From Baekduia alba (GTDB lineage: Bacteria > Actinomycetota > Thermoleophilia > Solirubrobacterales > Solirubrobacteraceae): a stretch of 64,000 nt of DNA. Position 1 is the first letter of the stretch, and each line of letters begins with the position of its first letter. The translations under genes were made by a program, and so were the position numbers. The notes below the pieces were generated by a model. The model did no database searches, had not been told where the DNA came from, and was given only the letters and a program-made list of their open reading frames with translations. Of the stretch, positions 29,244-31,826 are shown piece after piece. The stretch spans positions 2,666,001-2,730,000 of the forward strand of contig NZ_CP114013.1 of NCBI RefSeq assembly GCF_028416635.1, written 5' to 3'.

Positions 29244-29723
29244 ATGGCCCGCCAATGCCCCGAGTGCGGGTTCACGAACGCCGAGGGCGCGAACTACTGC
29301 CAGCGGTGCGGCGCGTTCATCGGCCAGCCGGACGAGGCGGTGGCGCCCGAGTCGTCCACCGCGACCTATCGCATCGACGAGACGGGTGAGCTCGTGCCGG
29401 TCGAGATCGAAGACGTCGTCGCCCAGGGCGGCGGCGCCGCGCTGGTGGTGCGCGCCGGTGGCGGCCGCGTGGGCGAGAGCTTCCCGCTCGACCACGACCG
29501 CATGACGATCGGGCGCCGACCCGACTCCGACGTCTTCCTCGACGACGTCACGGTCTCGCGCGACCACGCGCTGGTCGTCAAGCGCGGCGACGAGTTCCAC
29601 CTCGACGACCTCGGGTCGCTCAACGGGACCTACGTCAACCGCCGCCGCATCGAGTCCCATCACCTGGCCGACGGCGACGAGCTCCAGGTCGGCAAGTACA
29701 AGCTCACGTTCCTCTCGCGCTGA
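29244..29723 (+). CDS. Zinc-ribbon and FHA-domain protein (GarA/OdhI-like)
   Basis: 159 residues. An N-terminal zinc ribbon (CPECGFTNAEGANYCQRCG, two C-x-x-C pairs) is followed by a Thr/Ser-containing linker and a FHA domain (about 68-158: MTIGRRPDSDVFLDD, VSRDHALV, DLGSLNGTYVNRRRI), which binds phosphothreonine. Placement directly before a MerR gene matches the mycobacterial garA-Rv1828 pair, where GarA controls 2-oxoglutarate metabolism after phosphorylation by PknB/PknG. The usual ETTS phosphorylation motif is not present; ESSTAT is at the comparable place. GGAGGT lies 7 nt before the ATG. The stop overlaps the MerR start. Confidence 0.82.
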   Translation: MARQCPECGFTNAEGANYCQRCGAFIGQPDEAVAPESSTATYRIDETGELVPVEIEDVVAQGGGAALVVRAGGGRVGESFPLDHDRMTIGRRPDSDVFLDDVTVSRDHALVVKRGDEFHLDDLGSLNGTYVNRRRIESHHLADGDELQVGKYKLTFLSR

Positions 29724-30487
29724 TGGCCGCCGTGGAAGAGGAGCGCACCGCACCGACCGACGAGCGCCCCGGCAAGGCGATGACCATCGGCGCCGTGTGC
29801 AAGGCGCTGGGTCAGGAGTTCCCGGACATCTCGATCTCCAAGATCCGCTACTTGGAGGATCAGAAGCTGCTGGAGCCGCGGCGCACGCCGGGCGGCTACC
29901 GGCTGTACGCGCAGTCTGACGTCGCGCGCCTGCGCACGATCCTGCGCATGCAGCGTGACGAGTTCCTGCCGCTGCGCGTCATCAGGCAGGAGCTCGCCTC
30001 CGGCCGGATGGACGGCGGCGAGCCCACCGTGCCGACGCCGTCGGCGGACGCCGCGGGCGGCGACGCCGCGCGCACGCGCAGGCGGCCGAGCGTCTCGGTC
30101 ACAGGCGGCGGCGCCCTGTACTCGCTCGACGACGTCGTGGAGGACACGCGCGCCGAGCCGAGCCTGATCGCCGAGCTCGAGGAGTACGGCGTCATCAAGG
30201 GCGAGAACCGCGCCGGGACCAAGTACTACGACGAGACCGAGCGCGAGATCATCCGCGCGGTCACCGAGCTGGCGCGCTACGGCGTGGGCGGGCGCAACCT
30301 GCGCGCGTTCCGCACCAGCGCCGACCGCGAGGCCGCGCTGCTGCAGCAGATCCTGGCCCCGGCGCTGCGCTCGCGCAACGTCGAGCGGCGCAAGGAGGCC
30401 GTCGAGGCGCTGGAGAACCTGGCCGCCGTGACGACCCACCTCAAGCACCTGCTGCTGATCCGCGACCTGCGCAAGATCGTCGGATAG
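29723..30487 (+). CDS. MerR-family regulator (FtsR/Rv1828-like)
   Basis: 254 residues with a MerR winged helix near the N-terminus (FPDISISKIRYLEDQKLLEPRR, then GGYRLYAQSDVARLR) and a second region, about 130-200, that looks like another winged-helix motif (YSLDDVVED, LIAELEEYGVIKGENRAG). This double layout fits Rv1828/FtsR, which in Corynebacterium activates ftsZ. It is translationally coupled to the FHA gene (TGATG). The same-operon arrangement suggests a role in growth or division control. The apt leader follows directly, so apt may be read from the same transcript. Confidence 0.82.
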   Translation: MAAVEEERTAPTDERPGKAMTIGAVCKALGQEFPDISISKIRYLEDQKLLEPRRTPGGYRLYAQSDVARLRTILRMQRDEFLPLRVIRQELASGRMDGGEPTVPTPSADAAGGDAARTRRRPSVSVTGGGALYSLDDVVEDTRAEPSLIAELEEYGVIKGENRAGTKYYDETEREIIRAVTELARYGVGGRNLRAFRTSADREAALLQQILAPALRSRNVERRKEAVEALENLAAVTTHLKHLLLIRDLRKIVG

Positions 30488-30496
30488 GCGGACGCC

Positions 30497-30712
30497 ATGA
30501 CGGTGGACATCGGCTCCTTCGTCCCCGGGATGTCAAGCGAGTGAGCTCTGTGGACCTCAACAATTTCGTTCGCGACATCCCCGGGATGTCAAGCGAGTGA
30601 GCTCTGTGGACCTCAACAACTTCGTTCGCGACATCCCCGGGACGTCAAGCGAGTGAGCTCTGTGGACCTCAACAACTTCGTTCGCGACATCCCCGGGATG
30701 TCAAGCGAGTGA
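30497..30712 (+). other. Chain of four coupled mini-ORFs leading into apt
   Basis: Four short reading frames follow each other with GTGA stop/start overlaps. The first, ATG 30497 to 30544, encodes MTVDIGSFVPGMSSE. The next three (30541-30600, 30597-30656, 30653-30712) are GTG-started and encode 19 residues each, MSSVDLNNFVRDIPGMSSE or, for the second of these, the same with Met16 changed to Thr. The last overlaps the GTG start of apt. The first 14 residues of each 19-mer equal the N-terminus of Apt. A ribosome could pass along the chain by termination-reinitiation. Whether the peptides are made is unknown. Confidence 0.7.
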
Positions 30713-30746
30713 GCTCTGTGGACCTCAACAACTTCGTTCGCGACAT
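30523..30746 (+). repeat. Four tandem copies of a 56-bp unit made from the apt 5' end
   Basis: Exact 56-bp period: copies begin at 30523, 30579, 30635 and 30691, and the real apt sequence diverges after position 30751. Copies differ only by single bases (AATTTC for AACTTC in copy 1; GGGACG for GGGATG in copy 3). The unit joins the end of a leader peptide frame to the first 14 codons of apt. The joint lies in a TCCCCG hexamer present both in the leader (30522) and in apt (30746), which explains its origin by slippage or unequal crossover at this microhomology. Confidence 0.95.
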
Positions 30747-31239
30747 CCCCGACTTCCCGAAGCCGGGGATCGTCTTCAAGGACATCACGCCGGTGCTGGC
30801 GTCGGCCGAGGCGCTGGACGCCGCGGTCGCGCAGCTGGCCGCCGCGACGCGCGACCTGAAGGTCGACGTGGTCATCGGCGCCGAGGCGCGCGGCTTCCTG
30901 CTCGGCGCGGCGCTGGCGCGCGAGCTGGGCGCCGGGTTCGTCCTGGCGCGCAAGCCCGGCAAGCTGCCGCACGAGACCGTCCGGGCCGAGTACCTGCTCG
31001 AGTACGGCACCGACGCGCTCGAGCTGCACACCGACGCGGTCGCCCAGGGCGCGCGCGTCCTGGTCCACGACGACCTCCTCGCCACCGGCGGCACGGCGCG
31101 CGCGCTGTGCGAGCTGGTCGAGCAGCTCGAAGGCGTCGTCGTCGGCTGCGCGTTCCTGATCGAGCTCGGCTTCCTCGGCGGCCGCTCGAAGCTGGCGGGC
31201 TACGACGTCAGCTCGGTCCTGCGCTACGACGCCGAGTGA
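30709..31239 (+). CDS. apt: Adenine phosphoribosyltransferase
   Basis: Purine salvage enzyme converting adenine and PRPP to AMP. N-terminal DIPDFPKPGIVFKDITPVL and VIGAEARGFLLGAALA are family signatures; the PRPP-binding motif is VLVHDDLLATGGTA. Length 176 is normal. The GTG start is supported by the repeated copies upstream, which preserve the same GTG and following codons, and by the GTGA overlap with the last mini-ORF. In many bacteria apt sits next to relA; here it follows the MerR gene. Expression is probably tuned by the repeat leader. Confidence 0.95.
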   Translation: MSSVDLNNFVRDIPDFPKPGIVFKDITPVLASAEALDAAVAQLAAATRDLKVDVVIGAEARGFLLGAALARELGAGFVLARKPGKLPHETVRAEYLLEYGTDALELHTDAVAQGARVLVHDDLLATGGTARALCELVEQLEGVVVGCAFLIELGFLGGRSKLAGYDVSSVLRYDAE

Positions 31240-31694: not shown

Positions 31695-31826
31695 GCCCCC
31701 TGGGCGAACACCCGCAAGGGAACCTGGCCCTCTGGGCCAGCGTTCCCCTAGCCTGGCGGCGGGTTTCGCCCCCTGGGCGAACACCCGCAAGGGAACCTGG
31801 CCCTCTGGGCCAGCGTTCCCCTAGCC
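31695..31826. repeat. Tandemly duplicated bidirectional terminator (73-bp period)
   Basis: A 59-bp core occurs twice, 73 bp apart, between the convergent SRPBCC and RskA-like genes. Each core contains a long hairpin: GGGAAC-C-TGGCCC, loop TCT, GGGCCA-GC-GTTCCC. The hairpin is nearly symmetrical, so it can act on both strands. The second copy runs into the 3' end of the minus-strand gene. Confidence 0.8.

What the first reader, a model, noticed from the sequence alone, without database searches (positions are those of the whole stretch)
30497..30751. Variable-number repeat that rebuilds the apt start as a chain of coupled mini-ORFs
Four 56-bp tandem units copy the first 14 codons of apt joined to the end of a leader peptide. 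Because 56 is not a multiple of 3, each copy shifts frame, but each carries its own stop and restart with a GTGA overlap. apt therefore always starts in frame whatever the copy number. Seen directly: exact period, single-base differences, overlaps, and a TCCCCG microhomology at the joint that explains the origin. Inferred: copy number sets apt expression through reinitiation, a rheostat-like control.
Basis: partly seen in the sequence, partly recalled or inferred. Interest (0 to 1): 0.82.

Follow-up and report, generated by a model that had tools for sequence, protein, structure and literature searches.

The report
Tandem repeat of coupled mini-genes before apt
A 56-base DNA repeat sits between two neighbouring bacterial genes and turns the start of the second gene (apt) into a relay of tiny genes that each stop and restart; it is real, is one of a whole family of similar-length repeats in this genome, resembles the MIRU repeats used to fingerprint tuberculosis strains, and is most likely a young duplication that was tolerated because it keeps translation flowing rather than a proven dial for apt.

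Summary
In detail: four 56-bp units (30522-30745) plus a 6-bp tail lie between ftsR and apt, 98% identical. They form one 15-codon and three 19-codon mini-ORFs linked by GTGA overlaps, ending at apt. The origin offered needs correcting. The "leader" is the displaced old start of apt: the nearest relative begins apt MSVDIESFVRDI at the same place, and here the leader reads MTVDIGSFV and then runs into the repeat. None of about 50 relatives inspected at the junction, nor 232 genomes of the order searched, has the unit. The array is not isolated: in about 42% of this genome I found 17 near-perfect arrays of period 30 bp or more, 11 with period 53-59 bp, unrelated in sequence and nearly all at gene edges. 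Three lie at same-strand gene junctions (ftsR-apt, a binding protein/ABC permease pair, holin-X/DUF3618), and all three form perfect stop/start relays. Best reading: a lineage-specific minisatellite in a coupled junction, retained because each copy preserves coupling, working like mycobacterial MIRUs but not a member (not dispersed, locally derived). A copy-number rheostat is possible but untested; an unchanged apt start in every copy follows trivially from duplicating a start codon.

The parts
29723..30487 (+). ftsR, MerR-type regulator; upstream gene whose stop (TAG) precedes the relay
   Evidence: NCBIfam NF050798 TF_FtsR_Actino E 1.9e-66; ftsR-apt neighbourhood conserved in Solirubrobacterales relatives
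30497..30544 (+). 'Leader' mini-ORF MTVDIGSFVPGMSSE*: relic of the original apt start (MTVDIGSFV) joined to the repeat end
   Evidence: Synteny with relative L003 (apt = ATG TCG GTC GAC ATC GAG TCG TTC GTC CGC GAC ATC, 12 nt after the ftsR stop; here 9 nt); best anti-Shine-Dalgarno score of the chain, -8.5 kcal/mol
30522..30751 (+). Tandem array: 4 units of 56 bp (30522, 30578, 30634, 30690) plus TCCCCG tail
   Evidence: TRF, unit listing
30541..30600 (+). Relay mini-ORF 1 (19 aa, GTGA overlap at both ends)
30597..30656 (+). Relay mini-ORF 2 (19 aa)
30653..30712 (+). Relay mini-ORF 3 (19 aa)
30574..30590 (.). 17-nt palindrome GACATCCC-C-GGGATGTC at the unit joint (again at 30686-30702; one mismatch at 30630-30646)
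   Evidence: no other copy in the genome within one mismatch
30709..31239 (+). apt, adenine phosphoribosyltransferase, starting in the last copy (GTG 30709, or GTG 30718 = VDLNNF, the position aligned with relatives)
   Evidence: TIGR01090 / NF002636 above cut-off; 88% identical to relative G006

Best explanation
It is a young, lineage-specific minisatellite (56-bp unit) at the coupled ftsR-apt junction, one of a genome-wide class of 53-59 bp arrays at gene edges. Shown: the array, the coupled mini-ORF chain, absence in relatives, the leader being the old apt start, the genome-wide class, and two further relay arrays. Inferred: (1) a duplicated or re-made apt start plus a short filler was placed inside the old apt start; (2) slippage or unequal exchange between the TCCCCG direct repeats amplified the 56-bp unit to four; (3) ribosomes leaving ftsR restart at the leader ATG and hop through GTGA overlaps to apt, so apt stays translated; (4) variants that broke the relay were removed by selection. 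Any effect on apt level (attenuation per hop, or none) is a by-product whose size is unknown.
For: Array and frames. Leader is the old apt start. Unit absent from 232 order genomes and 396 phylum genomes apart from this one. Eleven of 17 near-perfect arrays have period 53-59 bp, nearly all at gene edges. The other two same-strand junction arrays also form relays: L195, TGATG, between a PBP-domain protein and an ABC permease; L281, TGATG, between holin-X and DUF3618. Four such loci outside apt lack the array in the closest relative. All three relay periods are 2 mod 3, as a stop/start overlap requires, while the other eight of the class spread over 0, 1 and 2. Stop/start-overlapping genes do reinitiate (PMC6728339).
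Against: No expression or ribosome data. Three of three relays in phase has probability about 1/27 without selection, only suggestive. The source of the filler is unknown, so the first step is not reconstructed. Copy-number variation was not observed because only one genome of the species is held. The overlap GTGs have ordinary, not absent, Shine-Dalgarno scores (-4.4; genome median -3.8), so independent initiation at apt is not excluded.
Confidence: 0.72

Rival explanations
1. Adaptive copy-number rheostat: the number of units varies rapidly and sets apt translation through the product of reinitiation efficiencies, giving heritable phenotypic variation.
For: Serial reinitiation would multiply losses per hop (inference). 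Precedent: tandem-repeat length upstream of fpg in M. tuberculosis correlates with expression, and that array also ends at the start codon and is absent from non-MTC relatives, where only a few bp separate the genes (PMC2734929). A 57-bp dop promoter repeat varies between strains (PMC12817950).
Against: No strain variation or expression data here. Two copies carry private substitutions, so the array is not turning over extremely fast. The review on coupling argues that MIRU coupling minimises impact on expression (PMC12548453). Similar arrays lie at 3' gene ends, where no such control is expected.
Confidence: 0.18
2. A MIRU-like mobile mini-ORF element inserted at a stop/start junction and then tandemly amplified.
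For: Anatomy matches the description of MIRUs (ORF coupled with -4 nt spacing, start-codon insertion). In L195 the unit shows no visible similarity to the start of the downstream gene and sits exactly at TGATG. Two relay arrays are AT-rich for this genome's coding sequence (G+C 0.58-0.59).
Against: The apt unit has no other copy in the genome, none in 232 order or 396 phylum genomes, and the units of different arrays are unrelated by eye. 42 of 56 bases of the apt unit are the apt start itself.
Confidence: 0.08
3. Regulatory DNA or RNA site: the palindrome GACATCCCCGGGATGTC at each joint is an operator, or the transcript forms a riboswitch-like element.
For: 8-bp arms are unusual (3.5% of controls); the 321-nt RNA folds at z = -2.5.
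Against: No copy elsewhere in the genome within one mismatch. No Rfam match. No promoter- or terminator-like site. Repeats inflate folding scores by self-pairing, and hairpins are not enriched in the array class.
Confidence: 0.03
4. Assembly artefact (false duplication).
For: Tandem repeats are error-prone in assembly; reads are not available here.
Against: The genome is one 5.86-Mb contig. Two copies carry private substitutions. Many similar arrays exist in the same genome, and the relay frame is intact.
Confidence: 0.03

Closest known systems
Mycobacterial interspersed repetitive units (MIRUs; Supply et al. 1997, as cited in PMC12548453, PMC2734929, PMC3914561)
   Same: Tandem units of 46-101 bp at gene junctions. 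Each carries a short ORF coupled to the next gene by a -4 nt overlap. Thought to leave the downstream gene expressed.
   Different: MIRUs are a dispersed homologous family (41 loci in M. tuberculosis) thought to be mobile. Here the unit exists at one locus only, is built mainly from the start of the downstream gene, and other loci of this genome carry unrelated units.
M. tuberculosis VNTR/ETR minisatellites (ETR 53-79 bp, PMC3914561; VNTR3239 upstream of fpg, PMC2734929)
   Same: Similar unit size and gene-boundary location. For fpg the array ends at the start codon and is missing in species where the two genes nearly touch.
   Different: Different order and genes. No typing or variation data here. 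VNTR3239 is a composite 55/79-bp repeat and was not described as a relay of coupled ORFs in the passages read.
Termination-reinitiation at overlapping genes (PMC6728339)
   Same: Stop/start overlaps (here GTGA; TGATG in the two parallel arrays) that allow reinitiation.
   Different: Normal cases join two real genes once; here four joints are chained through 15-19 aa peptides.

Membership tests
MIRU | Tandem units of about 46-101 bp in a junction of co-directional genes | tested here: met
   56 bp x 4 between ftsR and apt
MIRU | Short ORF in the unit overlapping the neighbouring ORF by 4 nt | tested here: met
   GTGA at 30541, 30597, 30653, 30709
MIRU | Dispersed family of homologous units at many loci | tested here: not met
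   Only one locus in the genome; no homologue in order or phylum samples
MIRU | Sequence homology to mycobacterial MIRU units | tested here: inconclusive
VNTR minisatellite | Near-identical tandem units of minisatellite size | tested here: met
   98% match, no indels
VNTR minisatellite | Copy number varies between strains | not testable with these tools
   One genome per species is held
Termination-reinitiation coupling | Stop and start codons overlapping or very close | tested here: met
   Four GTGA overlaps; leader ATG 9 nt after the ftsR stop
Termination-reinitiation coupling | Downstream translation depends on upstream translation | not testable with these tools
   Needs reporters or ribosome profiling
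Regulatory leader peptide (attenuator) | Conserved leader peptide gene in relatives | tested here: not met
   Relatives have apt itself starting there

The most novel reading that the evidence does not exclude
This lineage has a process that makes 53-59 bp minisatellites of unrelated sequence at gene edges. Where the edge is a coupled stop/start junction, selection keeps only arrays whose period is 2 mod 3, so that every copy becomes a relay mini-ORF; this yields copy-number-variable translational attenuation without a mobile element, and would explain MIRU-like coupling as a selected outcome rather than an insertion preference.
Probability: 0.25. Interest if true: 0.72.

Novelty: new variant of a known kind. 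Interest (0 to 1): 0.5.

Why it matters
If right, it shows that chains of coupled mini-ORFs at gene junctions can arise locally and repeatedly, without the dispersed MIRU family, in a different actinobacterial order. It gives a clean, testable rule (period equals 2 mod 3 at coupled junctions, unrestricted elsewhere) to tell selection from insertion. It also raises the question of why unrelated arrays in one genome cluster so tightly around 55 bp, a size range shared with M. tuberculosis minisatellites.

Tried and rejected
Independent regulatory leader peptide: rejected, relatives start apt there. Dispersed element: no other copy of the unit in the genome or in order and phylum samples. Operator palindrome: no other genomic site within one mismatch. 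Hairpin-driven slippage as a common cause: hairpins are not enriched in the array class (mean rank 0.53 by energy, 0.375 by inverted-repeat length). Rfam element: none. Promoter or terminator: none. Whether the 5' half of the unit descends from a diverged copy of the ftsR end: looks possible by eye (AGCGAG after the ftsR stop in G006, GCGAG in G004; L133 has a similar GTGAGCTC...TGGACCT start) but too short to decide; left open. A unit-against-unit BLAST failed on a script error and was not repeated; that the units are unrelated to each other rests on inspection and on the genome BLAST of the same call, in which no unit of the 53-59 class hit another array.

Full report
Observation. The window holds four 56-bp units at 30522-30745 followed by TCCCCG (30746-30751), 98% identical and without indels. 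Copy 1 has one private base (AATTTC) and copy 3 another (GGGACGTC). Upstream is ftsR (29723-30487, NCBIfam FtsR) and downstream apt (to 31239, adenine phosphoribosyltransferase). The leader ATG at 30497 opens MTVDIGSFVPGMSSE*; its TGA overlaps GTG 30541 as GTGA; three 19-codon ORFs follow with GTGA overlaps at 30597, 30653 and 30709, the last being the first possible apt start; GTG 30718 (VDLNNF) is the position that aligns with relatives. The period 56 equals 20 codons minus the 4-nt overlap. The mini-ORF reads out of the apt frame, across TCCCCG, into the leader frame because the hexamer has the same codon phase in both places; that is a one-in-three condition. That apt itself starts correctly at any copy number is automatic for a duplication that includes its start codon.

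Origin. ftsR and apt are neighbours throughout the Solirubrobacterales relatives examined, separated by about -5 to 125 nt, often with an ATGA or GTGA overlap. In the closest relative (G006, apt 88% identical) the junction reads TAG AGCGAGGACATC ATG TCG GTC GAC ATC GAG TCG TTC GTC CGC GAC ATC, which is the start of apt. In this genome the same place reads TAG GCGGACGCC ATG ACG GTG GAC ATC GGC TCC TTC GTC and then runs into the repeat. The 'leader' is therefore the displaced old start of apt. Joining its TTCGT to the TTCGT of the last copy gives MTVDIGSFVRDIPDFPKPGI in frame, the expected ancestral protein start (inference from the sequence). If the leader once had the full joint, a 9-bp deletion between TCC repeats explains its shorter form. 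The apt body looks vertically inherited, since it is closest to the same relative as ftsR. The unit is found nowhere else in the genome, in none of the other genomes among 232 of the order (matches there cover the apt start and not the repeat's spacer), and not in 396 genomes of the phylum beyond chance-level matches. The array is thus recent and local. The source of its filler (GGGATGTCAAGCGAGTGAGCTCT and neighbours) is not known.

A class of arrays. Tandem Repeats Finder gave 17 non-overlapping arrays with period 30 or more and at least 93% match; 11 have period 53-59 bp. The peak holds at every identity and copy-number threshold tried, and a scan test with log-uniform periods gives p of about 1e-4 (thresholds were chosen after seeing the data). 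The units look unrelated to each other. Ten of the eleven lie at gene edges: the 3' ends of an ftsX-like gene, a succinyl-CoA-ligase-like gene and others, gene starts, or just after stop codons (gene calls are from open frames with high third-position G+C). Purifying selection inside genes would leave such a pattern. In the closest relative, the four such loci that I compared outside apt have no array.

Relays recur. Two more of the eleven sit between same-strand genes. L195:17602-17790 lies between a periplasmic-binding-type protein and an ABC permease (phosphate-type by its looks): its 56-bp units read MTQTEKMTVVEVIAEIGS* with TGATG overlaps (56 = 19 codons minus 1), ending exactly at the permease start; relatives G006, G004 and G001 have the two genes joined directly at the TGATG. 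L281:18679-18865 (minus strand) lies between a holin-X family gene and a DUF3618 gene: its 53-bp units read MPQRSPEEIAEFLTEVN* with TGATG overlaps (53 = 18 codons minus 1), the first nine codons being those of the DUF3618 gene; relatives have no array. All three relay periods are 2 mod 3, which an out-of-frame stop/start overlap demands, while the other eight periods are 54, 56, 55, 59, 58, 57, 55 and 54. Three of three has a chance of about 1/27 without selection: suggestive, not proof.

Mechanism. Shown: the array, the frames, the class, the absence in relatives. Inferred: ribosomes ending at ftsR restart at the leader ATG, which has the best Shine-Dalgarno match of the chain (-8.5 kcal/mol), and then hop by GTGA overlaps whose own matches are ordinary (-4.4; genome median -3.8). 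Reinitiation at stop/start overlaps has been shown experimentally in H. volcanii and E. coli (PMC6728339). Whether four hops lower apt, or hardly matter, cannot be told here. The 17-nt palindrome at each joint, the folded RNA, Rfam and promoter scans gave no better explanation.

Comparison with the known. [quoted passage not shown] The anatomy here is the same, so it works like a MIRU. It fails the MIRU test of being a dispersed homologous family, so I do not file it as one. M. tuberculosis also has locus-specific minisatellites of similar size, one of which (VNTR3239, upstream of fpg) ends at a start codon, is missing where the two genes nearly touch, and correlates with expression (PMC2734929). 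The present case is a new variant: independent, locally made arrays in another actinobacterial order that converge on the same relay design.

Limits. One genome per species is held, so copy-number variation is untested; there are no reads, no transcript or ribosome data; 58% of the genome was not read; the comparison of array density with relatives is weak (316 kb of loci, no array of period 30 or more at 93% match).

Noticed in passing
L195:17602-17790: 56-bp x 3.4 array forming TGATG-coupled mini-ORFs between a PBP-domain gene and an ABC permease gene; absent in three relatives.
   Followed up: yes
L281:18679-18865: 53-bp x 3.5 array on the minus strand forming TGATG-coupled mini-ORFs between a holin-X gene and a DUF3618 gene; absent in relatives.
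   Followed up: yes
L175:8803-9144, L188:4663-4964, L204:13003-13254, L260:7144-7343, L185:7458-7659, L277:13656-13835, L265:11745-11871: Other near-perfect 54-59 bp arrays, mostly at 3' ends of genes, each starting and ending in the same partial unit; sequence-unrelated. Cause of the ~55-bp size unknown.
   Followed up: partly
L040, L041, L048 (ftsR-apt gap): Distant relatives carry an independent ~39-bp repeat (GTCCGAGCTTGCGAGGACCGAAGGGCGAAAC...) in the same ftsR-apt gap; nearly confined to that locus in those genomes.
   Followed up: partly
window 31695-31814: Repeat (CCTGGGCGAACACCCGCAAGGGAACCTGGCCCTCTGGGCCAGCGTTCCCCTAG, twice) similar to the 83-bp array L268 and related to other places in the genome; looks like a dispersed intergenic repeat family.
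   Followed up: no
L188:12135-12526: 101-bp x 3.9 array whose unit matches many other genomic places, i.e. a dispersed hairpin repeat unlike the 55-bp class.
   Followed up: no
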